From positions 1 to 38,470 of IMG/VR virus record IMGVR_UViG_3300032315_002013: a DNA stretch of 38,470 bases; one strand, 5' to 3'. Positions 21,320 through 38,470 of this stretch are shown in pieces. Source of the DNA: a virus. The notes under the pieces were generated by a model, which had not been told where the DNA came from, ran no database searches, and worked only from the letters and a program-made list of their open reading frames with translations. A program made the position numbers and the translations under genes. Numbering within the stretch: the stretch's first letter is position 1; the number at the start of each line of letters is the position of its first letter.

Positions 21320-21354
21320 CTGACCTCGCTTTTCTTTACTCTTATAATAGTGTT

Positions 21355-21954
21355 ATGAAGAAAGTCTGCTTTATAGTTAGTCATCTGGGATCGGGTTCTG
21401 ATGATCTTGTTCGTATAATTAATGACAATCCAGCATGTACTATTTATAATTCGCAAAATAGGTACGACAGCCCAGAATCATTAAATTGGATGTTTTCTAG
21501 CCCACACAAGCGGAGAGACAACTCGGCTATTTATGGCGATCATCTTCTTTACAACCCCAGCATGTCGCATAAATCGTTCTTTAATTTCTGTAAATTTATA
21601 TATGTCATAAGGCCAGCCAGACCATCTTTAAATTCAATAATATCCACCCAGGGCAAAATCTACTCTGAGAATTATGCGGCAAATTATTATAGATTTAGAC
21701 TTCGAAGGATTTGTGAAATGGCTCGCAAAACTCCGCGCGCCCTTTTTCTTTCATGGGATGATCTTGCGAGTGGGCGTGCTTTTAGTACAATTGAAGAATA
21801 TTTGGGATTAAATGATCCCATCAAAGTTAGCCATGAAGATTTCGTAGCGGATTATTCTGACTCTGTTCGAGAATCCATCGTAAAAGAGTCTCAAGACGCT
21901 TATGAAAGATACTATTACTATCTTAACAACATAAATTTGAAAAGGTGCGCATGA
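21355..21954 (+). CDS. Sulfotransferase-like protein
   Basis: ATG 21355 gives 199 residues; an upstream in-frame start lies within the portal coding region and is less likely. The N-terminus KKVCFIVSHLGSGSDDLVRI resembles the 5'-phosphosulfate-binding loop of sulfotransferases (G-S-G-S-x-x-L). FIYVIRPARPSLNSII fits the 3'-phosphate-binding strand-helix. ALFLSWDDLASGRAFSTIEE is the usual later element before the final helix. The protein is shorter than typical sulfotransferases (250-300). A TATAAT hexamer lies at 21343-21348, so an early-type promoter close to the ATG is possible. It is coupled by ATGA overlap to the oxygenase gene. The acceptor is unknown. Confidence 0.6.
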   Translation: MKKVCFIVSHLGSGSDDLVRIINDNPACTIYNSQNRYDSPESLNWMFSSPHKRRDNSAIYGDHLLYNPSMSHKSFFNFCKFIYVIRPARPSLNSIISTQGKIYSENYAANYYRFRLRRICEMARKTPRALFLSWDDLASGRAFSTIEEYLGLNDPIKVSHEDFVADYSDSVRESIVKESQDAYERYYYYLNNINLKRCA

Positions 21955-22577
21955 TAAAATCCACGGAAACTTCTGATTTTGTAGTATATGATGATGTGCT
22001 GGAACAAGAACAATTTCTTTCTGTTTGGCAAGCAGTACAAGCAGAAGACTATTCCATGCCGCACATAGGAGGATGGTCGAAAGTTTGGAGGCTTACTGAC
22101 GGCTCCTGTATTGGAAGCAAAAACTACGAGACAGAAAATGCTCCATTCAATAATTATATGGATCTCATGCTTTTTCTTGTGAAAAATGCTGCTGCTGCTA
22201 GCCCACAAATAATTACAAATTGGAAAACATTAACTTTAAGGTCTTATCTTTATCCAAGAGGCACAAAATTGTCGTGGCACAATGATCTAGGATATGAAGG
22301 TGCGGCCATCTTTTACATACACCCGGAATGGGGGTCAACTTGGGGTGGAGAATTGATGATTGCCTCAACACCCCCAGGTTTTAGCTTGCCCGCCCCACAC
22401 CTTGATCATAAAGAAGAAGATAAATTTCTTTCTTTACATGGAATGGGAACTTACATCACTGCTAAGCCCAATCGTCTTGTGGTCACCCGCCCAGGCGTCT
22501 GGCATTCTATTAATCGGGTAGATGACGACGCAGGCGACCATTGTCGAGCAACTATTGTGGGGTTTTTCAAGTCTTGA
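21951..22577 (+). CDS. 2OG-Fe(II) oxygenase (prolyl 4-hydroxylase-like)
   Basis: ATG 21951 follows AAAGG by five bases and overlaps the upstream stop (ATGA); 208 residues. TKLSWHNDLGYEGAAIFYIH supplies H-x-D, the first two iron ligands. STWGGELMIAS is the conserved strand with the G-G-E-L turn. PNRLVVTRPGVWHSINRV supplies the distal His, and RATIVGFF the 2-oxoglutarate-binding Arg. This is the double-stranded beta-helix of P4H-type hydroxylases, common in aquatic T4-like phages. The substrate is unknown; a surface glycan or protein is suggested by flanking sulfo- and glycosyltransferases. Confidence 0.85.
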   Translation: MIKSTETSDFVVYDDVLEQEQFLSVWQAVQAEDYSMPHIGGWSKVWRLTDGSCIGSKNYETENAPFNNYMDLMLFLVKNAAAASPQIITNWKTLTLRSYLYPRGTKLSWHNDLGYEGAAIFYIHPEWGSTWGGELMIASTPPGFSLPAPHLDHKEEDKFLSLHGMGTYITAKPNRLVVTRPGVWHSINRVDDDAGDHCRATIVGFFKS

Positions 22578-23296
22578 AAATATCTTTTTGTACCACATGC
22601 ATGAATAGGCTTTTTCATCTTGAGCAAACGTATCTCAAGAATATACAAAATGCATCTTCTTATCCTGATGTTGAGTTTATCTTATTGGACTACAACAGCA
22701 CAGATGGATTGAAAGAATGGGCAAAACAAAATCTTTCAAATCAAAGTGTGGTTAAATTTTATAGAACTTCTGAACCGAGATATTGGGTTGCCGCCCATGC
22801 CAAAAACATAGCACACAAGATGGCTAGTGGCGATGTGCTATGTAATTTAGATTGCGATATTTTAATTCCCGAGGGATTTTGCGAATATATTAATGAAGCG
22901 TTTTCTACTGAAAGGAAGATTGTCATGAGTTTTAGTAGTGAAGACGCACATGGAAATAATGGATGCGCTGGAATAGTTGCTGCTTTGCGAGAGCACTTCT
23001 ACTCAGTTAATGGATATGATGAGAGTATATCCATGGGGTGGGGTTGTGACGACATGAACTATCAGTTTCGAGTAAGGATGCAGAATGATCTTTTTTTGTT
23101 TGTTCCTCCTCCAATATGCTTGTGCATACCACATTCAAACGAAACGCGAACTGCAAATTGTCAACTTAAGAATATAGAAATGACAAGCGAAATGAGTTTT
23201 TCGCTCTGTCAAGATGCTGCTCTGGCACAAGATTACGTTGCAAATAAATCTCACGATTGGGGAAAAGCAACGCTTCAAAGTCTAGAAGAAGGCTAA
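22574..23296 (+). CDS. GT2-type glycosyltransferase
   Basis: The start is set at TTG 22574, overlapping the previous stop (TTGA), giving 240 residues beginning with KISFCTTCMNRLFHLEQTYL. An in-frame ATG at 22541 lies inside the oxygenase gene. VEFILLDYNSTDGLKEWA and GDVLCNLDCDILIPEGF give the GT-A nucleotide-sugar fold with D-C-D as the metal site. FYSVNGYDESISMGWGCDD plus MNYQFRVRM resembles the galactosyltransferase-type C-terminal acceptor region. It probably transfers a sugar to a virion or host-surface acceptor. It is part of a tightly coupled three-gene plus-strand operon. Confidence 0.85.
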   Translation: MKISFCTTCMNRLFHLEQTYLKNIQNASSYPDVEFILLDYNSTDGLKEWAKQNLSNQSVVKFYRTSEPRYWVAAHAKNIAHKMASGDVLCNLDCDILIPEGFCEYINEAFSTERKIVMSFSSEDAHGNNGCAGIVAALREHFYSVNGYDESISMGWGCDDMNYQFRVRMQNDLFLFVPPPICLCIPHSNETRTANCQLKNIEMTSEMSFSLCQDAALAQDYVANKSHDWGKATLQSLEEG

Positions 23297-23314
23297 TCCA
23301 CCTCCCGGTCTAGG

Positions 23315-23695
23315 TTACGCTGTTTGTCTGCATCCTTCTGGAGGTATTGGAAAACATCCATCTTCTTCAAACAATCTTCTTCCTTCTTGTTCTATATTTT
23401 GCCAATAAATTCTCGCCAAATCCACAGCGTCCTCTTCAGACAACAATTCGCTTTCTTCCCATATTCTGTTATGTGTGTCAACATACATGATATTTGGTTG
23501 AGCGCCCTGTCTTGAGACAAATTGTGGTTCTTTTCTGTGGATTCGCTTGACGACTACAGATTCTATATCGCCCAATCTTGCTTTTTTTCTTATGTACGCA
23601 CGATCTCCTACAAGAAACAATGTTAAAAAGTTTTTTTTAAGGGACAGCCCGGCGCAGCCGACTACTCTTATAGTTCCTGTTGATTCGTATTGCAT
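23315..23695 (-). CDS. Conserved-type phage protein of unknown function
   Basis: The 126 residues comprise a basic, beta-rich first half (FLVGDRAYIRKKARLGDIES, VVVKRIHRKEP) and an acidic helical second half (YVDTHNRIWEESELLSEEDA). The first half could be a small SH3-like or KOW-like barrel. I do not know a function. It is the only minus-strand gene among plus-strand sugar genes. It faces the GT2 gene convergently and the propeller gene divergently, so it has its own promoter; none was clear. Confidence 0.55.
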   Translation of the reverse strand: MQYESTGTIRVVGCAGLSLKKNFLTLFLVGDRAYIRKKARLGDIESVVVKRIHRKEPQFVSRQGAQPNIMYVDTHNRIWEESELLSEEDAVDLARIYWQNIEQEGRRLFEEDGCFPIPPEGCRQTA

Positions 23696-23753
23696 CTAAA
23701 TATATGTATCATTTTGAATTGACAAAATAGATATTTTTTGACTCATTTATTGT

Positions 23754-24728
23754 ATGTTTGCTAGAAAAGTTTTAGAAAATGGCGGAATAGTCAAGCCACT
23801 TCTTGTTCCCCATCAAAATCTTAATGGCCCTTCTTTGTGCAATCCTTCTGTTCTGAACAAAGAAGGTGAAATTATTGTAAACTTACGCAACATCAATTAT
23901 GTCCTCCACCACAGTGAGCAAGGCAAGTACGAGCATAGTTGGGGACCACTTTGTTATCTTCATGGAGAAAATGACCAAAGACTTTTTACCAAGAACATGC
24001 TCTGCGTCTTGGACGACAAACTGGGCGTGGTTAAATTCAACACAATAGACACTTCTTTGCTGGATGAGACACCTCTTTGGGAGTTTGTTGGTCTTGAAGA
24101 CGGAAGACTTGTTAATTGGAATAATGAAATTTATTTAAGCGGGGTAAGAAGAGACACAACTACAAATGGCCAGGGCAGAATGGAACTTTCCAAAATTTCT
24201 AGAAAAAATAAAGTTTTTGAGACTGAAAGAAAAAGAATACCTGCTCCGCCACCGGATACTAGTTATTGCGAAAAAAACTGGATGCCTATTCTAGATCAAC
24301 CATTTACATATGTAAAATGGACCAACCCGACCGAGGTTGTAAAGTTCGATATGAAAACTGGATCTTGCGATACTGTTTTTCTTTCTGATCACAAGCCATT
24401 TCATACAAAAGATCTTCGGGGTGGATCACAAGTGTTGTCCTTGGGTGACAAATATCTAGCGGTAGTTCATGAAGTTGATCTTTTTAATTCAGAAGCAGGA
24501 AGAAAAAATGCTGTGTACCTCCATAGATTTGTTTTGTGGGATCAAAAATTTAATTTAATCGACGTGTCTGATTCTTTTTCTTTTATGGGCGGTAAGATTG
24601 AATTTTGTTGTGGAATAGCAGAAAAAAATGAAAATTTAATTATAACTTTTGGGTTTCAAGATAACGCTGCATTCATTGCTTCATTTCCGAAGAAAATGTT
24701 GAGTTTATTTTTGAAGGAGGCAATTTGA
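23754..24728 (+). CDS. Five-bladed propeller glycosidase/phosphorylase-like protein (GH130/GH43 type)
   Basis: The 324 residues read LCNPSVLNKEGEIIVNLRNI, EFVGLEDGRLVNWNNEIYLS, KNWMPILDQPFTYVKW, LRGGSQVLSLGDKYLAVVHE and AVYLHRFVLWDQKFNL, then EFCCGIAEKNENLIITFGFQ. Order and motifs (N-P-S, L-E-D-G/R, K-N-W-x-P, G-G-S, E-F-x-x-G) fit the propeller of GH130-like mannoside phosphorylases and related proteins often found beside glycosyltransferases. Whether catalysis is retained cannot be judged by eye. It is followed by a TTGA-overlap start of the TPR-FkbM gene. Confidence 0.65.
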   Translation: MFARKVLENGGIVKPLLVPHQNLNGPSLCNPSVLNKEGEIIVNLRNINYVLHHSEQGKYEHSWGPLCYLHGENDQRLFTKNMLCVLDDKLGVVKFNTIDTSLLDETPLWEFVGLEDGRLVNWNNEIYLSGVRRDTTTNGQGRMELSKISRKNKVFETERKRIPAPPPDTSYCEKNWMPILDQPFTYVKWTNPTEVVKFDMKTGSCDTVFLSDHKPFHTKDLRGGSQVLSLGDKYLAVVHEVDLFNSEAGRKNAVYLHRFVLWDQKFNLIDVSDSFSFMGGKIEFCCGIAEKNENLIITFGFQDNAAFIASFPKKMLSLFLKEAI

Positions 24729-25960
24729 ACGAAGTTGAATCATACCTGGAAAACCCTCTAGGCGCCCAAGAAAATTTACGCGTGGCTCGGTGGTATGAAA
24801 CACAAAAACATCTTTCGCCTGCTTGTGGCTTTTATTTAAGAGCTGCCGAATTCTCTACAGATCCTAAAATTGTATATGAATGTATGATCAGACTTTATTA
24901 TTGTTATTCTGCATTGGGAGATAGAGATTATACATGCGAGAACGTTCTGAAAACAGCACTGAAAACTATGCCCAAAAGTCCCGAGGCATATTTCCTTCTG
25001 AGTCAGTTTTATGAGAGAAAGAAGAATTGGATGGATTCTTATTTGTATGCATCTTTGGGGCTTGATCTTTCTGATAAAAATCCTTCTGATCTCTTGTTTG
25101 GGTCCGAATATGAACATGAATATATGTTGCTGTTTCAAAAGGCAGTGTCATCATGGTGGTATGGAAAGCCGAATGAGTCTAGAGAAATCCTCAGAATCTT
25201 AATTGAAAATTTTCGTCATGTGATGAATAATCGATATTTTTCTCTCGTTCAACAAAACATATCTTCTATAGGAAGCGGAAATGAAACGGAAAGTTCCGTT
25301 AAATATGACAAAAGCAAATACGAGTCTTATAAATTTAAATTTGATGGCTTAGAAAGCATAGGTAAAAACTACTCCCAAGTATGCCAAGACCTTTTTGTGC
25401 TCTCCGTATTAAACGGCAAAAGAGATGGAACGTATTTAGAAATAGGGGCGGCACACCCCTATCACAATAGCAACACGGCTCTCCTTGAGGAATTGGGATG
25501 GAAGGGTTTTGGAATAGAATTAAAAAAGGAATTGGCAGACCAACATTCAGTAAGAGGAAACAGGGTGATTTGTGCCGACGCCTTGGCTGTGGATTATGAT
25601 TCCATACTTGTTGGTCTTGGCGAAGTAGTGGACTATCTTCAAATTGATATAGAGCCGCCCAAGAATACTTTTGAGGCTATGCTTGCCATACCGTTTGAAA
25701 AATACAAATTCAGGGTCATAACATACGAACACGACCATTATGCTGATGTATCAGGCACCTATCGAGATAAATCCAGGAGATTTTTATCAAACCTTGGGTA
25801 TAAATTAGTCGTGAACGATGTGTCTCCAAACGACAATTGCAGTTTTGAGGATTGGTGGGTCATGGAGGATCTCGTCGATATGGATATGGTTAAAAAAATC
25901 AAGAACGAGACCAGAGAGATAAATTATATTGGAAAAATCATGTTTGATGTGATTAAATAG
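24725..25960 (+). CDS. TPR-like/FkbM methyltransferase fusion
   Basis: TTG 24725 is supported by GGAGG five bases upstream and overlap with the previous stop; 411 residues. The first 170 form helical pairs typical of TPR repeats (YYCYSALGDRDYTCENVLKT, SPEAYFLLSQFYERKKNWMD). From about 210 a FkbM-type class I methyltransferase follows. YSQVCQDLFVL leads to GTYLEIGAAHPYHNSNTALL (SAM motif I). GWKGFGIEL, VVDYLQIDIEPPKNTF and FRVITYEHDHYAD then follow, ending with GYKLVVNDVSPNDN. FkbM enzymes O-methylate sugars or natural products, so a glycan acceptor is likely here. Confidence 0.8.
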   Translation: MNEVESYLENPLGAQENLRVARWYETQKHLSPACGFYLRAAEFSTDPKIVYECMIRLYYCYSALGDRDYTCENVLKTALKTMPKSPEAYFLLSQFYERKKNWMDSYLYASLGLDLSDKNPSDLLFGSEYEHEYMLLFQKAVSSWWYGKPNESREILRILIENFRHVMNNRYFSLVQQNISSIGSGNETESSVKYDKSKYESYKFKFDGLESIGKNYSQVCQDLFVLSVLNGKRDGTYLEIGAAHPYHNSNTALLEELGWKGFGIELKKELADQHSVRGNRVICADALAVDYDSILVGLGEVVDYLQIDIEPPKNTFEAMLAIPFEKYKFRVITYEHDHYADVSGTYRDKSRRFLSNLGYKLVVNDVSPNDNCSFEDWWVMEDLVDMDMVKKIKNETREINYIGKIMFDVIK

Positions 25961-28168: not shown

Positions 28169-28797
28169 ATATAAATCCTCGGATGATCTGAAGACTGTGT
28201 AGATCCATTCATGTTTGTAATTTGTCCACCTTTAAGATCGTTCAAATCTCTGATTAGTGGAGCATAAAAGACTAGATTGTTGTTTATAATCTTATTGCAC
28301 GCTATGCCTGTTGCTAAGGAGGTTATTTCTGGATTAGTCACCACTCTCTCCCATATACCCACATTGGCTATCGAGCCATTAAAAAAAACAGAATAATTGG
28401 ATGAGCCTATCTGAACCACAGTAAATGGATCTTGTCCTCCGGTAATAGCGTTGTTGTTACTGCCACTAGCCCCATTGACGAATGCGTTTCTTGCAGAATC
28501 GGAAACGAATCTGGCCACAACGTGAGTCCATGTATTGGTTGATACTGAAGCAAAACTAGTAGCTGTTTGCGAAGTAGTTTTAGTGACATGTGTTGCTAAA
28601 ATTCTTCTACTGGTATCAATGAGCATTGTCATTCTGCCATTAGTGCCCTGAAAGGCTTGAACACCCATTATTCTTTGAGTGGCGCTTGGAGTAGCACTTA
28701 TTTTAATCCAGCAGCTCATGGTGATTGGCGTGTTGACAGAAAAATTATAGTCCTCTGTCAAGTATTGAGAAGAAGCTGCTGTGAATGAGTAGCTCAT
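28165..28797 (-). CDS. LamG/concanavalin-A-like fibre protein
   Basis: The 210 residues comprise one jelly-roll domain: SYSFTAASSQYLTEDYNFSV, TPITMSCWIKISATPSATQR, TNTWTHVVARFVSDSARNAF, VNGASGS, then FFNGSIANVGIWERVVTNPE and NLVFYAPLIRDLNDLKGGQI. This is the LamG_3 pattern (W-h, a two-stranded core, V-N-G, I-x-x-V-x-I-W), a carbohydrate-binding fold. The ending LNDLKGGQITN is common to phage LamG tips. It overlaps the collagen-like gene by one base and the assembly-like gene by four, so the operon is translationally coupled. A receptor-binding role is likely. Confidence 0.8.
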   Translation of the reverse strand: MSYSFTAASSQYLTEDYNFSVNTPITMSCWIKISATPSATQRIMGVQAFQGTNGRMTMLIDTSRRILATHVTKTTSQTATSFASVSTNTWTHVVARFVSDSARNAFVNGASGSNNNAITGGQDPFTVVQIGSSNYSVFFNGSIANVGIWERVVTNPEITSLATGIACNKIINNNLVFYAPLIRDLNDLKGGQITNMNGSTQSSDHPRIYI

Positions 28798-29639
28798 CAG
28801 TTGTACCTTAAAGTAATGCCTATCAGTTCAGCATCCCCAACCATGGTGTCGTTTGTGGCATCTGTGCCAACTCTGCTAATTCTCACCCTAAACAGATCGC
28901 CAGCCGATAAAGAGTCTATGTTGGTTGAGCTAATATCTAAATAGACAGGTATGCCTGCCGTTGCTGAAGCGGTTGAGTTTGCCTCTGTAGCAGTGTGGAA
29001 GGAGTCTGCGTCATAATCTGTATTGCCTCTTTCAAATTCCACTCGCCACCTCACATTACCAGACGTAGCACTAGTAGCTATCCAAGCAATCCTAACCGTA
29101 ATACCGCTAGCTAAAGAAATACCATCAGGTATGATACCGACAAATACGCTTGATTCAACTAATGAATCATCAAAATCTAATACCAAGATACTATTTCTAG
29201 TATCAATCGTTGCAAAATTTGAGGATGGTGGTTGATTATCTTCGCTAGTAAATTGACAAAATGTTTTAGTTGTAGTCCCTTGGACGCCTTGAGTTCCTTG
29301 GATGCCTGTGGTTCCTTGGATGCCTGTGGTTCCTTGGATGCCTGTGGTTCCTTGGATGCCAGTGGTTCCCTGGATGCCAGTGGTTCCCTGACTACCAGTA
29401 ATGCCTTGTGAACCAGTGGTTCCTTGACTACCAGTAATGCCTTGTGAACCAGTGGTTCCCTGACTACCTGTTAATCCTTGACTACCTGTTGTTCCTGTAG
29501 TGCCTTGCCTTCCTTGAATTCCTTGAACTCCCTGAAGCCCCGAAGCAGTTTCTACGAATGTCGCATCACTAAACGTTAGTCTTTGAAGCGTTACGCTGCC
29601 ACTCGTTGTTACATTATTGGTTCCATAGTCTATAGGCAC
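28797..29639 (-). CDS. Collagen-like fibre protein
   Basis: GTG 29639 is preceded by GAGG; 280 residues. After [20 protein letters not shown] comes a Gly-x-x region of about 28 triplets (roughly residues 35-125), with [12 protein letters not shown] and [11 protein letters not shown] units and no proline. The rest is a beta-rich C-terminal domain ([34 protein letters not shown]). Collagen-like helices in phages trimerise into thin fibres. A CGTAAATA octamer (29656-29663, 6 of 8 to the late promoter) lies upstream. It heads the minus-strand fibre operon. Confidence 0.85.
29270..29520 (-). repeat. Collagen-like 9/18-bp coding repeats
   Basis: Tandem Gly-x-x codons, with units such as ggttccttggatgcctgtgg and gactaccagtaatgccttgt on the plus strand. 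Close relatives of these units recur at 37880-38470 in the large adhesin gene. Confidence 0.9.
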
Positions 29640-29763: not shown

Positions 29764-30579
29764 GTGAAGAGACATTATTTCATCAGCGGAATGCCAAGAT
29801 CGGGATCTACTTTGTTGTGCAACATTCTTGCGCAAAATCCCAAGTTTTTTGTATCTCCTGCAACATCGGGTTGTCATGATGTTCTTTTTAACGTACGAAA
29901 TCAATGGGATCGTCTCATTGAGCACCAAGCGGAAGGCGTAGACTACGAAAGGTTACGTTCCGTTCTTCGTGCTGTACTTGATTCGTATCATGGCACGGAA
30001 AAAGATATTGTAATAGATAAGGGTCGGGGCTGGCTATCTCTGATAGAGATGCTACAGTTCATAAAAAACGAGCAGCCCAAAATAATAGTTCCAGTTAGGG
30101 ACGTAGCAGAGATACTTGCAAGTTTTGAGCAACTTTGGCGAAAGAGCACAGGACAGAGTCAGTGGATGTTTGAAAGTTCTGAATACTTCAAGGCCCAAAC
30201 ACTAGAAGGAAGATGCGATATATGGGCTTCCCAAGAACAGCCCGTGGGCTTGGCCTACAACCGCGTCAAGGATGCAATCTCTAGAGGACACGGCAAATTA
30301 CTTCTTTTTGTTGAAATGGACGACTTAACAACAAACCCTGCACAAACAATCAATAAGATATACAATTTTCTGGATGAGCCCCTTTTCAATCATGATTTTA
30401 AGAATGTCCAGCAGTACACAAAGGAAGATGATCTCGGAATACACAGAATACCAGAACTTCATTCCATAAGACCTGTTGTGGCTCCCGTGCCTCATAGAGC
30501 AATGGAAATACTAGGCTTGGTACTTAAAAATAAATATCTAGGATCAGAAATATGGCGAGATGTAACTAATATAAGTTAA
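29764..30579 (+). CDS. Sulfotransferase family protein
   Basis: GTG start, 271 residues. HYFISGMPRSGSTLLCNILA (residues 4-23) is the P-loop-like 5'-PAPS-binding motif. PKIIVPVRDVAEILASFEQL (about 111-130) is the 3'-phosphate-binding segment with Arg. KLLLFVEMDDLTTNPAQTIN and KIYNFLDEP are the C-terminal family elements. The length is normal for the sulfotransferase_1/3 families. It transfers sulfate from PAPS to a hydroxyl, here probably on a sugar or fibre protein. It is divergent from the collagen-like fibre operon. Confidence 0.85.
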   Translation: MKRHYFISGMPRSGSTLLCNILAQNPKFFVSPATSGCHDVLFNVRNQWDRLIEHQAEGVDYERLRSVLRAVLDSYHGTEKDIVIDKGRGWLSLIEMLQFIKNEQPKIIVPVRDVAEILASFEQLWRKSTGQSQWMFESSEYFKAQTLEGRCDIWASQEQPVGLAYNRVKDAISRGHGKLLLFVEMDDLTTNPAQTINKIYNFLDEPLFNHDFKNVQQYTKEDDLGIHRIPELHSIRPVVAPVPHRAMEILGLVLKNKYLGSEIWRDVTNIS

Positions 30580-30600: not shown

Positions 30601-30924
30601 ATGGGAATTTTAGACAACAATCCGAATCAAGAAATAAATCCTTCTGAGAGAATTGCAAACATGCTAAAGCAACAGACCAGAAACACATTCATTCAGCTGG
30701 TTCAATCGTTCAACCAAGGAGCGCAATCTTTTTGGGATAATCCTGACGCATCGCCTGCGGAGATCGCATTGTCGCTTGGCGAAGATGCCAAGGAAATTTT
30801 TGAATTACATGGAAAGATAGGTGCTCTTTTGGCTGAGATCAAACCTGAAGCCATACAGCCTGGATTATCTGTCGTGGGTCAATTTCAATATAATTCAGAT
30901 GGTACGGTCACAATTATCAGTTGA
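30601..30924 (+). CDS. Small conserved phage protein of unknown function
   Basis: The 107 residues have GGAG before the ATG. RIANMLKQQTRNTFIQLVQS, FNQGAQSFWDNP, ASPAEIALSLGEDAKEIFEL, HGKIGALLAEIKP, then a beta end FQYNSDGTVTII. Proteins with FWDNP...LG.dA.e.F.LH.k...L occur in aquatic phages near fibre genes. A small structural or assembly role is plausible, but I know of no defined function. It lies 21 bases after the sulfotransferase, probably in the same transcript. Confidence 0.65.
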   Translation: MGILDNNPNQEINPSERIANMLKQQTRNTFIQLVQSFNQGAQSFWDNPDASPAEIALSLGEDAKEIFELHGKIGALLAEIKPEAIQPGLSVVGQFQYNSDGTVTIIS

Positions 30925-30928
30925 TTCA

Positions 30929-31216
30929 ATGACTGATCAACTTGCCCTAGCCCAGATATGCTCCTTGTATGCCACCGATAAGAATGTTCTCCATTCTTAT
31001 GTGGATAACGTCTACGAAGATATTTTCAAGGACTTAAGGCAATCAACCAAAAAAATGCTTGAAATAGGAGTTGAGACGGGAGGAAGCCTTTTGATGTGGA
31101 GGGAGTATTTCCCGAACGTGACCATAACGGGAATAGACATTAAGCCTTGTCCCCAAGCAATCGGCAGGGATCGCATACTCAGGTGCGGTTTAGTAGACAT
31201 ATTTTGGGTTTCTTAA
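30929..31216 (+). pseudogene. Truncated SAM methyltransferase, N-terminal half only
   Basis: From ATG 30929, 95 residues: LAQICSLYATDKNVLHSYVD, then KKMLEIGVETGGSLLMWREY (SAM motif I), FPNVTITGIDIKPCPQ, after which homology stops and the frame ends RCGLVDIFWVS. The family normally continues with an acidic motif and the I-L-V-I-E-D-I-Q signature, as in the fragment at 25992-26282. Loss coincides with the start of the AT-rich region and a direct repeat at 31223. A folded function is unlikely without the second half. Confidence 0.6.
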
Positions 31217-31222
31217 AAATTC

Positions 31223-31289
31223 TATAAAATAACATTATTTTGAGAAAAAAATAAATTGAACTGATTTTTACAAAAATCAACCCGTTGAT
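31223..31289. repeat. Direct repeat flanking a sulfotransferase gene, left copy
   Basis: The first 51 bases (31223-31273, beginning tataaaataacattattttg) are identical to 32083-32133, and similarity continues to 31289. The sequence corresponds to the last codons of the pyruvyltransferase gene at 32082, so it is a detached copy of that 3' end. Confidence 0.95.
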
Positions 31290-32071
31290 AGAAAATAATT
31301 TTTATCGAAAGAATAGTTATAGAGATGTAGAACCTCTAAGCATATTTTATTGTGAGTTTCTTTTTGTTCATCGGTCCAATTAATAGTATCTATATCCAAT
31401 ATTGATGGTTTTTGGTTTATACTCCATTGTGTTTTATCTCCTTTTACAATATTAGTAGAAAAAAAGTTAATTATTTTTTTATTTATTTCTGCATACTCTG
31501 GTAGTAAATTTATGATATCTTGTGCTACTTTCTCTATATTAAATAAAATATCATAGTGTTCGATTTCTATAAAATTATCACCTAATATACTTTTGTCTAA
31601 ATGATACCAATTTTTCATTATATCGCTCCATTGTTGACAATGCTGCGCAAAGGACGCATCTTTCCATTTAATAATTCTAGAATTTATATTTTCTAAGGAT
31701 CTTCGTTTTAGCATTATAAATTTAGCATTTGGCCACATATACAATATATCACTGATAGGCATGCTTCCTGGCGTTTTATCAAACCAATATTTTTTGGAAT
31801 TGTCGAACAATGATTCATACGTATGTTTAAATCCAGATAGTAGATTGCTCATTAATACGTCTTTTTTTATATTACCCATTGCCGTGCTTTGATGTTTTTC
31901 GTGTGATGTTAATTTATCAAATATGCCATCTGTAGTCTCCTTATATCTATTGATGTGCTTTAAGAAGTGTCCCTCGACGTACCCCTGTATCTGTAAAACT
32001 TCTTTGAGACATGTGGCTAGAGCAGTTGTTCCGGACCTAGGATTACCTAAAACAAATATTGGTGTTGACAT
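31277..32071 (-). CDS. Sulfotransferase family protein, AT-rich
   Basis: The 264 residues show STPIFVLGNPRSGTTALATC (residues 2-21), the 5'-PAPS loop. WFDKTPGSMPISDILYMWPN is followed by AKFIMLKRRSLENINSRIIK, the 3'-phosphate segment with Arg-Arg. NFIEIEHYDILFNIEKVAQD completes the family pattern. Codon use is strongly AT-biased like the next two minus-strand genes, unlike the plus-strand sulfotransferase at 29764. The stop lies inside a 67-base direct repeat shared with the end of the neighbouring pyruvyltransferase, indicating insertion or replacement by recombination. Confidence 0.85.
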   Translation of the reverse strand: MSTPIFVLGNPRSGTTALATCLKEVLQIQGYVEGHFLKHINRYKETTDGIFDKLTSHEKHQSTAMGNIKKDVLMSNLLSGFKHTYESLFDNSKKYWFDKTPGSMPISDILYMWPNAKFIMLKRRSLENINSRIIKWKDASFAQHCQQWSDIMKNWYHLDKSILGDNFIEIEHYDILFNIEKVAQDIINLLPEYAEINKKIINFFSTNIVKGDKTQWSINQKPSILDIDTINWTDEQKETHNKICLEVLHLYNYSFDKNYFLSTG

Positions 32072-32081
32072 AAATTATTCT

Positions 32082-33185
32082 TTATAAAATAACATTATTT
32101 TGAGAAAAAAATAAATTGAACTGATTTTTACAATAATTAACTTGTTGATCCAAATAACTATAATCATCTTCTTGCCACATGCTCATTTCTAATATTTCTT
32201 TATGATTTTTGTTTTTTAATGTATTAACATCTATATGTTTAATTCCGTTTGTTATTGCCAATTCTTTTGTACGACTATCTATAGTAAAGATTGTACCAAT
32301 AATTTCATTTTGTAAACCTATAGCAACTCCGTGATATCTTGTTCCGATTACTAGATCATATAATTTCATTACTGAAGACCAATCATTTGTATTATAAAAC
32401 ATTCTCCCGTACCTGACAAACCATCTGCGCAGATCCTCATTGTCCATCTGGTATATTGCTGAAATACTATCAGGTATTTCTACATTTTCTCCATGTATAA
32501 GCGAAAAAATTATTAAGGGCGATTGAGCTATATGAACTCCATTATACTCTTCTGTTATAAGCTTTAATTCTTTTTCTAACCAAGCAGAAGCTTGATTGTA
32601 AGGATTGTTTCCTGCAACGCATGCATTAGCTATTTTTTTATTATTATATTTGTTTTTAAGATGTGTCCCCAAATTATCCCTAAAAAGCATAGTGCTGACA
32701 CACCCAGTAATCGAACTTTCGATACCATAAAAGTTTAATACTTTTTGAGAATATTCCCCTCTAACAGAAATATTCGGGTGTTCTGATATTCTTTTTGAAC
32801 TTATAATTTTTAATAGTTCTGGCCATCTGTTATTTTGTGGCAATATATCTAAATCATTAAAATTGTGATGCTGAGTACCCAAACAACACATAATAATTGG
32901 AATATTAATTTGTTCAATAAAATTAAATAATAAATCGCTAGGAACAAAATGTTTTCCTATCTGATTGGCACATTTAATTAATAATAAATCTTGAGAATTA
33001 ATAAATCTAGCATCAGAGAAATGAAAACTATTAAGTGAGTGATTATGTAAAACCTTTTCATAAGCATTTAAATGAACCAAATTACCAGTATTACCTCCAC
33101 AAAAATCGTAGTGATCTTTTGCTGTTGAGCCTATTGGTTTTTTCTTATTATCGGCAATTATCCAATCAATTGAGGCAATGTTCAT
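32082..33185 (-). CDS. Polysaccharide pyruvyl transferase
   Basis: The 367 residues show GSTAKDHYDFCGGNTGNLVH at the N-terminus and IPIIMCCLGTQHH, ISVRGEYSQKVLNFYGIESS, ITGCVS. Then MKLYDLVIGTRYHGVAIGLQ and FTIDSRTKELA follow. V-I-G-x-R-Y-H-G is the hallmark of the PS_pyruv_trans family, which adds ketal-linked pyruvate to cell-surface polysaccharides; some members act as other glycan-modifying enzymes. It is coupled to the upstream giant glycosyltransferase by ATGA overlap. The 3' end carries the second copy of the direct repeat. Confidence 0.85.
   Translation of the reverse strand: MNIASIDWIIADNKKKPIGSTAKDHYDFCGGNTGNLVHLNAYEKVLHNHSLNSFHFSDARFINSQDLLLIKCANQIGKHFVPSDLLFNFIEQINIPIIMCCLGTQHHNFNDLDILPQNNRWPELLKIISSKRISEHPNISVRGEYSQKVLNFYGIESSITGCVSTMLFRDNLGTHLKNKYNNKKIANACVAGNNPYNQASAWLEKELKLITEEYNGVHIAQSPLIIFSLIHGENVEIPDSISAIYQMDNEDLRRWFVRYGRMFYNTNDWSSVMKLYDLVIGTRYHGVAIGLQNEIIGTIFTIDSRTKELAITNGIKHIDVNTLKNKNHKEILEMSMWQEDDYSYLDQQVNYCKNQFNLFFSQNNVIL
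32083..32149. repeat. Direct repeat, right copy (native 3' end of pyruvyltransferase)
   Basis: Copy of 31223-31289 at an offset of exactly 860 bases; 51 bases identical, then about five differences. Here it is in frame as the C-terminus CKNQFNLFFSQNNVIL. Confidence 0.95.
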
Positions 33186-36169
33186 ACTGTTAATACCTTT
33201 TTGTTTTCTAGTATTAGAAAACCTATATATCTTTCCAAAGCATGCTCGAAGTGAAAGTCAGGAATTCCTTTTTTACCAAATTTATTGTATAATTCTAAAA
33301 AATTGTGCGCAAGTCCTTTTTCTACAATTTCTTTAGATTCTAAATCGATTGGTTCATTGTAAATGTTGTGTAAATAGTAATTGTAGTATTCGTCGAATAT
33401 TATTTTATCTTTCATGCAACTAACCCAAAAATCATTTTTTGTAGACATTGTCGTTAAGTTTAATTTTAATTCTTTGTTTAAGTCATATAATTTTTTTATA
33501 TGGTGTAACTTCGTTATGAAAATTGTGCCACCTATAAACTTAAAACTCTGTTCATAAACATCATCAAAAACGCTGTGGCTTCTTAGCACAGCTCTGTTTA
33601 AATCATTGACTTTGCATTCCAAACAGAATCTATCGTTAATGACTGTGTCGTAAGGCTCTATTTCATCTTCTCGTAAATAAAAAATTTTGTTTAACTCTTC
33701 TCTCCATAAAAGGTTAGATTTACTATGCAAATAGGCTAGTTTTTGATTATTTTCTTCCAAATTATTATTAGCATAAATTTTATTGACGCAACTTAACAGC
33801 CCGTTTAAATCCCAACCCATGTTCACTGATAGTTCGATGTTTTCTAGATTTAGGACACTATCAAAGTATTCTTTGTATTTCTTCGTGAAAAACTTTTCTT
33901 TTTCTTTAGAAAGTTTTTTTTCAAAACCATTTTCAACATTAACATTTATAAAAACTTTGTAAGATAAACTATTGTTGATGTTAAAATTGTTTATTATATT
34001 TACAAAATATTTAATTTGTGAATTGTTGTAGTCGTTATTTTTTTTGTAAAAATTGAAAATTAAAAAATTATTCTTTTCTCTTGTACTTTTAATTATTTTA
34101 GGTTTAGAAAAATTTTGTTTTATATAATTTGCTCCGATATCATTTTTTATGTATTTAGATAAATTTAACGATCCAAAAGCATCAATTATTTTGTCTTCTT
34201 CGTTTTCTTCTATCTCAATTAAGTTATCTTTTAAAGTAATTTTATTATGTTGATAGAAGATATTATTTTTTATAGTTATCACTCTGTTGTTAAGCAATAA
34301 ATTTTCTAAAATTACAATTGGACAGGGGTCTCTTTTACTCGTAAGAAAAAAATAGTCAAGATTTGCAAAGTAAGAGTAAGGATTTTTTGTATTGGGAATG
34401 TGTTTTAGGTTATCTAAGGGCTTCGACTCGCAGACTGCCCAATCTGGTTCTCCTCCTATCCATATAAAATCATACTGTGGATAGGCGTTGGCTAGCTTAT
34501 AAAAAAGATTTGGGTTTTTTCTTTCGCACGACGTACCGCTCATGCCTATTGTAACTTTATTATTTGTTTTTTGAGGTTTTGAAGATAGACTTTGAATATG
34601 AAAGATTTTTTCTTGAGGAACAAATGGTGGAAAAATTGAAACATTTGTACACCCAATGGTCTCGAACTCTTTTTTTATTCTATCCGCAACTACTAGGATT
34701 TTTTGATCTTTAATCTGAGCTAATGAATTCTTATTTACGTCGTATAACGTTTCATGAAAATGAAAATAAGTTTTATACCAATAATCTTTAAACTTGTTTA
34801 TGTTGTAAAAATATATGCTTAATGAATTGTTGTAAATAAAAACCGGGTTGATTTCGTGAACAAGCCCCAGTAGTCTATTTGGATCGTTGTGATGGTAGAG
34901 TTTGTCTATTTCATAATTGTCAAAATTATTGTTTTCATAAGGCTCAACTATTATAGGATTTTTAATTATATTGTTTTCTTTTAGATAAGTGACAAAATCA
35001 TATAAAAATATAGGAGCACCACTTAAATTGCAGTCGTGATTTATAAAAATTGGATAGAGACTTGGACCGAAATCTCTTTTTATTATCTTATAAATTCTTT
35101 TTTCTTTAATACCATGATCTAAATAGTGATTTACTAGTTCTTCATCATTTAGACCACTAAGATCTGCATATATTGTCTTATACTCTTTTGGATCAAAGTC
35201 TTCTGGCAGAGTCAGGGTTCTGTGACTTTTGTGAACTTGAGCTTTAATAGTAGCACTATCGCCCACTCTGTCATAAACTTTAATACCTGAATTTTGAGTA
35301 TGTTTCCAATTTATAATGACTTGATTATTTTCGTTAACCGAGTATTCCCCAAAAATTTTTGGATCTTCGGTTATGTAACACTCATTATTATACAATTTGA
35401 CTAGATTAAAATATTCTTTGTTGGGAGCTTCTTTGTTTATTACTTTTATAGTTTCATGCTTTGGAAAACAAAATTTAAGATTTTCTTGTTCTATTATGTA
35501 ACCAAAAATTCTTTCTAAAGAATGAGAGTACGAGCCTGTGGTTATGCTCGAAATATCTCCAGATTCTTGCTGTAACAATTCATTAATTTTAAAAAATTTG
35601 TGATTTAATTTGTCTTGGAATATTTTGCTTTTGCTCAAGAACATAGTCCCAGCAGCAAATTTTGAGTTCTTAACATCTTCATAATTCATATTCAACATTT
35701 TGCATAAATGTTTTATTTTCTCGGAGTTGTTGTCTTCTAGATTTTTCAATAAAAATTGTTTGCTACAAACCATTCCGCATTCCGGATTGGAAATAGACTC
35801 TATGTTGGATAAAAAAAGTTCTTTTGAAGCGAAAAAGTCATTTAAAAGAATTGCTCTCCAATTGACTTGATTGTTTTTGCCAAATCTACTTTTTTTGCTG
35901 TGAATCTTAATAAAAAAATCTTCATTCAACAATTGAAGTTGATGTAAAAACGGAGCTATATCCGCCCCATAGTTTTTATGATAAGATACGTGATGATCAA
36001 ACTCAATAAATTTGTTTCTTATAGCGTCATAAGAAATTGCTTCAAAGTTTTTTTCCTCGCATAAAGCAACATAAAGTTTTATGTGCTCACGATATGGGTA
36101 CATCAATTTTTCAAACTCTGGCCATAGATCTGTGTGGTAGAGTTGCAAACAAACTGCGATTTTTTTCAT
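33182..36169 (-). CDS. Giant modular glycosyltransferase: RgpF - GT4 - RgpF
   Basis: The protein has 995 residues. About 1-260 is RgpF/rhamnan-synthesis-like: [45 protein letters not shown]. About 375-680 is a GT-B (GT4-like) glycosyltransferase: HDCNLSGAPIFLYDF, KVTIGMSGTSCERKNPNLFY, FIWIGGEPDWA, RDPCPIVILENLL, the usual E-x7-E-like nucleotide-sugar region. About 700-990 is a second RgpF-like domain (MGWDLNGLLSCVNKIYANNN, LAYLHSKSNLLWREELN, GGTIFITKLHHIKKLYDLN). Such proteins build or decorate surface polysaccharide. AT content is very high. Its ATG overlaps the stop of the adhesin gene (ATGA), directly coupling fibre and glycosyltransferase synthesis. Confidence 0.85.
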   Translation of the reverse strand: MKKIAVCLQLYHTDLWPEFEKLMYPYREHIKLYVALCEEKNFEAISYDAIRNKFIEFDHHVSYHKNYGADIAPFLHQLQLLNEDFFIKIHSKKSRFGKNNQVNWRAILLNDFFASKELFLSNIESISNPECGMVCSKQFLLKNLEDNNSEKIKHLCKMLNMNYEDVKNSKFAAGTMFLSKSKIFQDKLNHKFFKINELLQQESGDISSITTGSYSHSLERIFGYIIEQENLKFCFPKHETIKVINKEAPNKEYFNLVKLYNNECYITEDPKIFGEYSVNENNQVIINWKHTQNSGIKVYDRVGDSATIKAQVHKSHRTLTLPEDFDPKEYKTIYADLSGLNDEELVNHYLDHGIKEKRIYKIIKRDFGPSLYPIFINHDCNLSGAPIFLYDFVTYLKENNIIKNPIIVEPYENNNFDNYEIDKLYHHNDPNRLLGLVHEINPVFIYNNSLSIYFYNINKFKDYWYKTYFHFHETLYDVNKNSLAQIKDQKILVVADRIKKEFETIGCTNVSIFPPFVPQEKIFHIQSLSSKPQKTNNKVTIGMSGTSCERKNPNLFYKLANAYPQYDFIWIGGEPDWAVCESKPLDNLKHIPNTKNPYSYFANLDYFFLTSKRDPCPIVILENLLLNNRVITIKNNIFYQHNKITLKDNLIEIEENEEDKIIDAFGSLNLSKYIKNDIGANYIKQNFSKPKIIKSTREKNNFLIFNFYKKNNDYNNSQIKYFVNIINNFNINNSLSYKVFINVNVENGFEKKLSKEKEKFFTKKYKEYFDSVLNLENIELSVNMGWDLNGLLSCVNKIYANNNLEENNQKLAYLHSKSNLLWREELNKIFYLREDEIEPYDTVINDRFCLECKVNDLNRAVLRSHSVFDDVYEQSFKFIGGTIFITKLHHIKKLYDLNKELKLNLTTMSTKNDFWVSCMKDKIIFDEYYNYYLHNIYNEPIDLESKEIVEKGLAHNFLELYNKFGKKGIPDFHFEHALERYIGFLILENKKVLTV

Positions 36170-38470
36170 GGAGTAAATTCTTCATCTAATTGCGACGACA
36201 ATCCCAGTAGGCTCATGCCACCTCCGGATCCGCCTATAACTTGGCTGATATCTATAACAGCTACCCAACGAATGTTTTTACTAGCAACCCCTGTTACTCT
36301 TATTTCCAATGCCTCATTGGTGTTGTCGGCCACCACACTGGCACTGGCGGTGCTAAGACTATTTTCGACACCGCTTTCGCTAATGACCGAACCCACCAGC
36401 GCCGTTTCGTTGGAATTGTTGCGTCGTATGCCGCCCCTGAATATCCACCAACCTCCTTCGCCGTTTGTGGTGTTATAAGCACTAAGCTTTATAGTGAATG
36501 TCCAAGCGCTTCTTGCCGGAAGGGTCAGTCTTGCTGAACTACCGTCCAAGAATAGAACCTGATTGGCTGTAGCATCGGTGGTGTTTCTTCTGGCAATTAA
36601 TATGCTATGCTGGGCATCACCATCAACAGAGAATCTTCCCGAAGCGTGAGACACTTCACCATATTTATTTGATAATGAATTTCGACCACCTATTGCGGTG
36701 CTGTAGTCGGCGCTTGCGGTGTTGCTCCGTCCCCCGGCCACGACGGCGATGGTTCCGCTTGAAACGTTGCCAAATCCCCCGCTCACGGTGCTACTGTAGG
36801 CGGTTGCTGCATTGCTATTTCCCCCGCCCACGGTGCTGCGTTCACCGCTTGCGGTGTTGCTAGTTCCCCCGCCTATGGTGCTGTAGGAGTTGCTTGCGGT
36901 GTTGTCAAGTCCCCCGCCCACGGTGCTACGACCTCCGCTTGCGGCGTTGCCAAATCCCCCGCCCACGGTGCTGTTGTAGTTGCTGGCGGTGTTGGTTTGT
37001 CCGCCGCCTACGGTGCTACGAATTCCGCTTGCGGTGTTGTTAAGTCCCCCGCCCACGGTGCTAGTGAAGTTGCTTGCGGCGTTGCCAAATCCCCCGCCCA
37101 CGGTGCTGGAGGTGGCGCTTGCGGTGTTGCTTTGTCCCCCACCCACGGTGCTACGAAGTCCACTTGCGGCGTTGCTTTGTCCTCCGCCTATGGTGCCGTA
37201 GAAGCCGCTTGCGGTGTTGCCATTTCCCCCGCCCACGGTGCTCCAGGCGCCGCTTGCGGTGTTGCTTTGTCCGCCGCCTACGGTGCCGTAGGAGTTGCTT
37301 GCGGTGTTGCTAATTCCATTAACTACTTGCCCGATTGCGCCATCAGTTTCTGCTGTGTTAACAACACTAACCTGGCTCCACGTTTGACCACCAGCCCCAA
37401 CATTAGATGTTACAACTAAATTTACATTACTAGAACTCTGAGTGGCACTAGCAACTGTTCTAGTGATTAAATTCCAAGTGTTGTTATAAAAGTATCTTAT
37501 TTGCAAAGCGTTAGTAGTGGTATTATCAAAATCTGCGGCTGTTGCACTCAACACCGTTATGGTGTTTGTGCTACTTGTTATATTATTTGCTCGTCTAACT
37601 TTTGCGGCAGCAACGTTATTGGCTCCTCCGCCGATGAATGATATTTGACTTTGTGCTAGATTGTTTTGCCCGCCACCCACGCTGCTATTTGTCCCTGCGG
37701 CAGAGTTCTGAAATCCTCCGCCTACGGCACTTTGTACGCCTGTGAATACTGACTGTATTCCTCCGATTATTTGGTTTGCTCTTAGGGTGTTGCCGTCAAA
37801 TGTGAAATTGCTGTCGCCGGATGCAATATTGCTTGAATTTTTATAAACAACCTGATTGGCGGATCCAGCTACAGGACCAGTTATTCCTTGTGTTCCTTGT
37901 GAACCTGTGGTTCCTTGTGAACCTGTGGTTCCTTGTGAACCTGTGGTTCCTTGTGAACCTGTAGTTCCTTGTGAACCTGTAGTTCCCTGTGAACCTGTAG
38001 TTCCCTGTGAACCTGTAGTTCCCTGTGAACCTGTAGTTCCCTGTGAACCAGTAATACCCTGTGAACCAGTAATACCCTGTGAACCAGTAATACCCTGTGA
38101 ACCAGTAATACCCTGTGAACCAGTAATACCCTGTGAACCAGTTAATCCTTGTGAACCTGTTAATCCTTGTATACTTTGTGCTGCACCTATTGTTAAGGTA
38201 TCATTAGTTGAATTGTATGTTAATACAATATTGTTGCCTGCAAGTAATTCTGTCGTTAAATTTGCGGTGCTTCCTTGTGTTCCTTGCACTCCCTGCGAGC
38301 CTTGTGTTCCCTGTGAACCTTGCACACCTTGTGAACCTGTTAATCCTTGTGAACCTGTTAATCCTTGTGAACCTTGTGAACCTGTTGTTCCTTGTGAACC
38401 TGTTAATCCTTGTGAACCAGTTAATCCTTGTGAACCAGTTAATCCTTGTGAACCAGTTAATCCTTGTGAA
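36166..38470 (-). CDS. Collagen-like plus Hep_Hag (YadA-head) fibre/adhesin, N-terminus beyond window
   Basis: The frame is open to the right edge, so the start is missing; at least 768 residues are encoded. The visible N-terminal part is Gly-x-x collagen-like ([12 protein letters not shown] units). An insert containing [17 protein letters not shown] is followed by more collagen-like triplets to about 37880. A domain ending near 37330 follows, then about 17 repeats of 14 residues ([12 protein letters not shown] type), as in trimeric autotransporter head domains. A C-terminal domain ([54 protein letters not shown]) resembles ends of aquatic phage fibres. A trimeric receptor-binding fibre is likely. 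Confidence 0.88.
36700..37315 (-). repeat. 42-bp Hep_Hag coding repeats
   Basis: A 42-bp period (for example cccccgcccacggtgctacg) repeats through the segment. It encodes 14-residue units S-T-V-G-G-G-x-x-N-x-A-S-x-x. The variable positions differ between units, so the array is old or diversified rather than freshly duplicated. Confidence 0.92.
37880..38470 (-). repeat. Collagen-like 18-bp coding repeats, two blocks
   Basis: Units such as ccttgtgaacctgtggttcc are repeated nearly identically at about 37890-38170 and 38280-38470, and the array reaches the window edge. Sub-blocks (tgtggtt, tgtagtt, cagtaat, tgttaat variants) show recent local expansion. Confidence 0.95.

What the first reader, a model, noticed from the sequence alone, without database searches (positions are those of the whole stretch)
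31277..38470. Adhesin translationally coupled to a three-enzyme glycan machine
The collagen/Hep_Hag fibre gene overlaps by ATGA the RgpF-GT4-RgpF gene, which overlaps the pyruvyltransferase by ATGA; the sulfotransferase follows. The fibre is very Ser/Thr/Asn-rich. Inference: the phage may build pyruvylated, sulfated glycan on its own fibre, or alter host polysaccharide recognised by that fibre. Tight coupling favours a fibre-linked role.
Basis: inference. Interest (0 to 1): 0.62.

Follow-up and report, generated by a model that had tools for sequence, protein, structure and literature searches.

The report
Phage fibre with coupled glycan-building enzymes
In a large T4-like phage, a collagen-like, serine/threonine-rich fibre gene is joined to sugar-transferring and sugar-decorating enzyme genes, and relatives keep the fibre but swap the enzymes, so the phage probably puts a custom sugar coat on its own fibre; no experiment has yet shown this.

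Summary
The gene layout is real: a collagen-like fibre overlaps a 995-aa glycosyltransferase by ATGA, which overlaps a pyruvyltransferase by ATGA; a sulfotransferase follows after 10 nt. The overlaps alone are ordinary (5 of 21 same-strand pairs in the window).

The support comes from relatives. A near-identical sister phage keeps the fibre-ATGA-RgpF junction but replaces everything downstream. A distant phage has the same fibre domain, ATGA, and a standalone RgpF module. Other phages place this module one or two genes after Thr/Pro-rich proteins, some with UDP-galactopyranose mutase. Of the ten closest non-redundant fibre relatives, nine carry a glycosyl- or sulfotransferase within three genes downstream; two of these also have TibC-like enzymes, a family known to glycosylate adhesins. 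Two further fibres carry a fused arylsulfotransferase domain. More distant carriers of the domain lack such enzymes.

Best reading: an exchangeable fibre-plus-glycan cassette that glycosylates the phage's own fibre (confidence 0.6; the substrate is inferred). The enzymes are AT-rich and probably recently acquired; the sulfotransferase is flanked by a direct repeat. The pyruvyltransferase is particular to this contig. Host-surface modification remains possible. New variant of a known kind.

The parts
36166..38469 (-). Collagen-like, Ser/Thr-rich tail fibre, 767 aa seen, 5' end missing at the contig end
   Evidence: PF01391 E 3e-25; PHROG tail fibre families; S+T 28%
36169..36684 (-). C-terminal fibre domain shared with 122 viral loci
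   Evidence: alignments A3/A6
33182..36169 (-). 995-aa multidomain glycosyltransferase, ATGA overlap with the fibre
35240..36169 (-). RgpF module (residues 1-310), the constant partner of the fibre; predicted GT-A-type fold
   Evidence: PF05045 E 6e-13; 60% identical in the sister; AF2 pLDDT 86.7; GT-A matches Z up to 13.2
34262..34582 (-). GT4-like part (residues 530-636)
   Evidence: PF00534 E 0.0013 whole protein, 2e-4 for the segment, below the Pfam cut-off
33671..33970 (-). Weak C-terminal RgpF-like stretch (about residues 734-833)
   Evidence: HHalign E 4e-4, 36% probability; tblastn E 6e-4
32082..33185 (-). Polysaccharide pyruvyltransferase, ATGA overlap with the 995-aa gene
   Evidence: PF04230 E 6e-12; TRYHG motif
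31277..32071 (-). Sulfotransferase with the PRSGTT motif
   Evidence: PF13469 E 1e-17
31223..31294 (.). Direct repeat copy behind the sulfotransferase
   Evidence: 72 nt, 92% identical to 32083-32154
32083..32154 (.). Direct repeat copy at the 3' end of the pyruvyltransferase gene
29764..30579 (+). Second sulfotransferase (phrog_27463); its homologues directly follow the fibre in relatives; here inverted
   Evidence: PF00685 E 2e-13; phrog_27463 E 2e-52
30601..30924 (+). Small conserved protein that follows the second sulfotransferase in relatives

Best explanation
An exchangeable 'fibre plus glycan' cassette of a T4-like, probably huge, phage. The collagen/head-repeat fibre is made together with a cytoplasmic glycosyltransferase whose N-terminal RgpF module is the constant partner. 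That module, with the GT4-like and RgpF-like parts, builds a short O-glycan on Ser/Thr of the fibre (Thr of the collagen GxT triplets, Ser/Thr of the STVGGGxxNTASG repeats). The pyruvyltransferase and the sulfotransferase then add negatively charged caps. The enzyme set is swapped between near-identical phages, so the sugar coat of the fibre, and perhaps adsorption or masking, can change quickly. Shown: gene order, families, conservation of the pair, block exchange, GT-A-type fold of the module. Inferred: that the fibre is the substrate, which sugar and linkage, order of steps, late expression, benefit.
For: Sister phage with near-identical core keeps fibre-ATGA-RgpF and swaps the rest. A distant phage has collagen fibre, ATGA, standalone RgpF. 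The module follows Thr/Pro-rich proteins in other phages, three lineages with UDP-galactopyranose mutase between. 9 of 10 closest non-redundant fibre loci have a glycosyl- or sulfotransferase within three genes downstream; all 8 genes of the second-sulfotransferase family in the survey lie within two genes of a fibre. TibC/Aah-type enzymes follow the fibre in two relatives; a fused arylsulfotransferase domain in two others. Fibre is rich in Ser/Thr, with 24 of 55 collagen triplets of the form GxT. None of the three enzymes has an obvious membrane segment. Proven analogue: SgtA acts on Thr in collagen repeats of the neighbouring BclA3 (PMC7157674).
Against: No experiment. ATGA overlaps are ordinary here. 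Enzyme genes are AT-rich and may be recent passengers. The pyruvyltransferase next to a fibre is seen only here. Six of the 20 close fibre loci have a readable downstream region with no recognised enzyme. The RgpF module of LR756511 is not next to a fibre. RgpF, WbsX and pyruvyltransferase families normally act on polysaccharides (general knowledge).
Confidence: 0.6

Rival explanations
1. The enzymes remodel the host surface polysaccharide (receptor masking or superinfection exclusion), and their place next to the fibre reflects co-inheritance of a receptor binder with enzymes that act on the same receptor.
For: RgpF, WbsX, PS_pyruv_trans and Sulfotransfer families are typical of polysaccharide pathways (general knowledge); the cassette is exchanged together with the fibre, as a receptor-matching block would be; UDP-galactopyranose mutase and nucleotide-sugar genes in relatives supply sugars for any acceptor.
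Against: No flippase, polymerase or lipid-carrier gene was recognised in the cassette; standalone RgpF modules follow Thr/Pro-rich proteins; TibC-type enzymes, known to act on proteins, take the same place in relatives.
Confidence: 0.24
2. Recently acquired passenger genes (morons) with no settled role, kept briefly by recombination near a hypervariable fibre.
For: GC 29-30% against 43% for the bulk; direct repeat flanks the sulfotransferase; enzymes differ between sister phages; truncated methyltransferase at the edge of the block.
Against: The RgpF module is kept beside the fibre at 60% and 33% identity with intact reading frames; enzymes recur in the same place.
Confidence: 0.11
3. The enzymes modify another phage component (DNA bases, capsid or tail proteins) and not this fibre.
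For: Phage glycosyltransferases are reported to modify DNA and capsid/tail-tube proteins (reviewed in PMC12619734).
Against: The conserved neighbour is the fibre or another Ser/Thr-rich protein, not a capsid or DNA-metabolism gene.
Confidence: 0.05

Closest known systems
SgtA-BclA3 of Clostridioides difficile spores (PMC7157674)
   Same: A glycosyltransferase gene next to a collagen-like surface protein; Thr of collagen repeats is the acceptor
   Different: sgtA lies upstream, adds GlcNAc to a spore protein, is not an RgpF enzyme, and has no pyruvyl/sulfo genes beside it as far as read here
TibC/Aah autotransporter heptosyltransferases (PMC4358343)
   Same: Dedicated enzyme modifying a repetitive adhesin; TibC-type enzymes sit behind the same fibre family in relatives G009 and G061
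   Different: The window itself has RgpF/GT4/pyruvyl/sulfo enzymes, no TibC-type one; bacterial hosts, not phages
Mycobacteriophage virion glycosylation (Freeman et al. 2023, cited in PMC12619734; paper itself not held)
   Same: Phage-encoded glycosyltransferases acting on virion proteins
   Different: Capsid and tail-tube proteins there; here a collagen-like fibre with coupled, swappable enzymes
Mimivirus collagen and its glucosyltransferase (PMC9546862, abstract only)
   Same: A virus encodes both collagen and a collagen-modifying glycosyltransferase
   Different: Hydroxylysine-linked sugar in a eukaryotic virus; unrelated enzyme family as far as tested
RgpF/WbsX polysaccharide enzymes (PF05045, PF14307)
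   Same: Same Pfam families
   Different: Here directly behind a fibre gene, without the rest of a polysaccharide cluster

Membership tests
RgpF (PF05045) | Profile match over the curated cut-off, N-terminal module | tested here: met
   48.7 bits against 25 for residues 2-229, to the C-terminal half of the model
RgpF (PF05045) | Second RgpF domain at the C-terminus | tested here: inconclusive
   No Pfam match; HHalign E 4e-4, 36%
RgpF (PF05045) | Sugar-transfer activity on a rhamnan or other acceptor | not testable with these tools
   No assay
Glycosyl transferases group 1 (GT4, PF00534) | Profile match over the curated cut-off | tested here: not met
   18.7 and 21.5 bits against 26.4
PS_pyruv_trans (PF04230) | Profile match over the curated cut-off | tested here: met
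   46.5 bits against 25.3
Sulfotransfer_3 (PF13469) | Profile match and 5' PAPS loop | tested here: met
   65.6 bits against 27; PRSGTT at residue 11
YadA_head / Hep_Hag repeats (PF05658) | Profile match in the window fibre | tested here: not met
   None at E 0.1 for the whole protein, none at E 10 for residues 206-767
TibC/Aah O-heptosyltransferase (TIGR04414), in relatives G009 and G061, not in the window | Score over the equivalog cut-off | tested here: not met
   126.4 bits (G009) and 108 bits (G061) against 200; the N-terminal barrel region is outside the match
TibC/Aah O-heptosyltransferase (TIGR04414), in relatives G009 and G061, not in the window | Four iron-finger cysteines | tested here: met
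   All four align to TibC 4rb4 for G009 (read); the same pattern is seen in the G061 sequence
Dedicated adhesin-glycosylation locus (SgtA-BclA3 / TibC-TibA kind) | Acceptor protein shown to be glycosylated | not testable with these tools
   Needs glycoproteomics
Dedicated adhesin-glycosylation locus (SgtA-BclA3 / TibC-TibA kind) | Enzyme gene adjacent to a Ser/Thr-rich repetitive surface protein gene | tested here: met

The most novel reading that the evidence does not exclude
A so far undescribed family of phage RgpF-like protein O-glycosyltransferases dedicated to Ser/Thr-rich collagen- or mucin-like virion fibres, forming exchangeable fibre-glycan cassettes in large T4-like phages that can switch the sugar coat, in this contig to a pyruvylated and sulfated glycan.
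Probability: 0.42. Interest if true: 0.78.

Novelty: new variant of a known kind. Interest (0 to 1): 0.62.

Why it matters
Phage fibres decide which cell is infected. If a phage builds a swappable, charged glycan on its own fibre, host range, masking and phage-phage competition would depend on sugars that cannot be read from the fibre sequence alone. It would also give a compact bacterial-virus counterpart of adhesin and collagen glycosylation, with sister phages and standalone modules available for direct tests.

Tried and rejected
ATGA coupling as evidence: rejected as ordinary. Relatives of the whole 995-aa protein, the pyruvyltransferase and the sulfotransferase in viral contigs and phage records: none found with the single proteins, apart from one weak RgpF match in LR756511 and the sister, found later through a neighbouring gene. 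RgpF module in 84,980 bacterial and archaeal genomes: none with the two short peptide patterns used, so only a limited negative. Pyruvyltransferase as a regular fibre neighbour: rejected; 2 of 50 related records have one, neither near a fibre. A glycan enzyme as a universal neighbour of this fibre domain: rejected; confined to the close group. Structure of residues 331-995 from a single sequence: pLDDT 34, unusable. My label 'GT9-like' for the 298-aa gene in L160 was not supported by Pfam; that locus counts only through its sulfotransferase. PDB sequence searches with the 995-aa protein, the RgpF module and the sulfotransferase gave no match. Fold matches of the module are to GT-A enzymes in general and do not tell the sugar. 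Literature searches found no report of this pairing in the titles and abstracts listed, but only open PMC text was searched and few papers were read.

Full report
What is there. The window is a 38,470-base virus record. It holds T4-type major capsid, protease and portal genes. Its capsid protein is 78.8% identical to that of LR756511.1, a 595-kb uncultured phage genome. On the - strand, reading in from the right end, come a collagen-like fibre without its 5' end (36166-38469), a 995-aa glycosyltransferase (33182-36169), a pyruvyltransferase (32082-33185) and a sulfotransferase (31277-32071). The first two junctions are ATGA overlaps; the third is a 10-nt gap.

Is the coupling special? By itself, no. 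Five of 21 same-strand neighbour pairs in the window, and 29 of 199 over the window and related loci, overlap by exactly 4 nt. Coupling alone cannot carry the argument.

The sister phage. Contig IMGVR_UViG_3300032304_002271 (loci L005 and L085, record G001) is nearly the same phage: capsid protein 100%, portal 99.6%, most shared genes 95-100% identical. At the fibre it differs. The fibre is 77% identical and overlaps an RgpF gene by the same ATGA. The first 310 residues of that gene are 60% identical to the window's. After that everything is replaced: the protein goes on as WbsX (PF14307, E 1e-111) and two further RgpF segments, and there is no pyruvyltransferase or sulfotransferase behind it, only a methyltransferase on the other strand. 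DNA homology resumes at about window position 30914. Fibre and first RgpF module are the constant pair; the rest is exchanged.

The same pair elsewhere. A search with the RgpF module (alignment A7) found 15 loci. L168/L244 has a 181-aa collagen fibre with the same C-terminal domain, then ATGA, then a standalone 314-aa RgpF. In the group L234-L240 the module comes 6 nt behind Thr/Pro-rich, mucin-like proteins. In L241/L247, L242 and L243 a Thr-rich protein is followed by a UDP-galactopyranose mutase (PF03275 E 2.5e-72 in L241; the other two by sequence resemblance) and then the module. L243 and L246 have nucleotide-sugar epimerase/dehydratase genes downstream. Ser+Thr content of these partners is at or above the 90th percentile except in L246. 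Whether the Thr/Pro-rich proteins are virion proteins is not established.

Survey from the fibre side. The fibre's C-terminal domain was found in 122 viral loci, 80 of which were kept. After removal of near-duplicates, 9 of the 10 closest loci (the sister included) have a glycosyl- or sulfotransferase within three genes downstream, 11 of 20 at E<=1e-40, and none of the 39 more distant ones. The commonest partner is a homologue of the window's second sulfotransferase (29764-30579); all 8 such genes in the survey lie within two genes of a fibre-domain gene, usually followed by a homologue of the small protein 30601-30924. In the window and its sister this pair lies inverted. The control is limited: the loci were collected by the fibre domain, and the annotation used only a handful of query enzymes, so enzymes of other families would be missed.

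Protein-modifying enzymes in relatives. G009 and G061 have an enzyme of the TibC/Aah O-heptosyltransferase type behind fibre and small protein. The G009 protein matches TibC structure 4rb4 (E 9e-19) with the four iron-finger cysteines aligned, but scores below the equivalog cut-off and lacks the N-terminal barrel, so I call it TibC-like. TibC heptosylates the adhesins TibA and AIDA-I (PMC4358343). In G007 and G041 the fibre itself carries an arylsulfotransferase domain. Different enzyme families in the same place are the strongest argument for a fibre-linked function.

The RgpF module as an enzyme. AlphaFold2 on ten aligned phage modules gives pLDDT 86.7, pTM 0.87. Its first 240 residues match GT-A glycosyltransferases (PcManGT Z 13.2, 163 residues at 2.7 A; RmlT and others tied near Z 12-13). 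This supports a glycosyltransferase and does not identify the sugar. Invariant residues include N66, G68, D70, H90, K92, E219 and R220.

Origin. The three enzyme genes have 29-30% GC against 43% for the bulk and 49.5% for the fibre. A 72-nt direct repeat, 92% identical, flanks the sulfotransferase: the end of the pyruvyltransferase gene recurs behind it. I read the sulfotransferase as a recently inserted cassette; a mis-assembly is less likely because one end of the copies has diverged, but is not excluded.

Mechanism. Most likely the fibre and enzymes are made together, the RgpF module and its associated domains build a short O-glycan on Thr/Ser of the fibre, and pyruvyl and sulfate groups are added to the sugars. 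The nearest proven analogue is SgtA-BclA3, where a glycosyltransferase encoded next to a collagen-like protein adds GlcNAc to Thr in the collagen repeats (PMC7157674). The window fibre has 55 collagen triplets in two runs, 24 of them with Thr in third position. Shown: order, families, conserved pairing, swapping, fold. Inferred: substrate, sugar, linkage, order of steps, benefit. The main rival, host-polysaccharide modification, is weakened by the recurrent Ser/Thr-rich partners and the TibC-like enzymes, but sequence cannot rule it out. The pyruvyl step is particular to this contig: 2 of 50 related records have another pyruvyltransferase, neither by a fibre.

Novelty. Phage-encoded virion glycosylation is known for mycobacteriophages (as cited in PMC12619734), and a collagen glucosyltransferase is known from mimivirus (PMC9546862, abstract). 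I found no report of an RgpF-family enzyme paired with phage fibres, or of a pyruvyl/sulfotransferase fibre cassette, in the open literature searched. I rate it a new variant of a known kind.

Noticed in passing
window 31223-31294 and 32083-32154: A 72-nt direct repeat (92% identical) flanks the sulfotransferase gene; the 3' end of the pyruvyltransferase gene recurs behind it, as if the gene had been inserted as a cassette.
   Followed up: partly
window 30929-31216: Truncated methyltransferase gene on the + strand; a full-length relative (197 aa) lies in the sister phage at L085 11425-12018. It marks the edge of the exchanged block.
   Followed up: partly
window 28797-29639: Second collagen fibre: 280 aa here, 189 aa in the sister, the difference being the collagen repeats (96% identical elsewhere): repeat-number variation.
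   Followed up: no
window 21286-25960: A + strand cluster next to the portal with a GT2/GT7-like glycosyltransferase, a 2OG-Fe(II) oxygenase-like protein and proteins without clear family, another possible modification island.
   Followed up: no
L143 and L144 (records G007, G041): Fibres that fuse the same C-terminal domain to an arylsulfotransferase (PF05935) domain; G007 also has a major-tropism-determinant N-terminal domain (PF18454).
   Followed up: partly
L241, L242, L243, L247: Operons of Thr-rich protein, UDP-galactopyranose mutase and RgpF module in T4-like viral contigs, suggesting galactofuranose as a possible donor sugar.
   Followed up: partly
L166 10972-13334 (record G061): Behind two tandem fibres, sulfotransferase and small protein come a TibC-like enzyme and a 504-aa protein that looks like a GT8 glycosyltransferase joined to a methyltransferase (by eye only).
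   Followed up: partly
LR756511.1 86669-87388 (L136): An RgpF match is read through three TAG codons, possibly a sign of TAG reassignment in this huge phage, or of a decayed gene.
   Followed up: no
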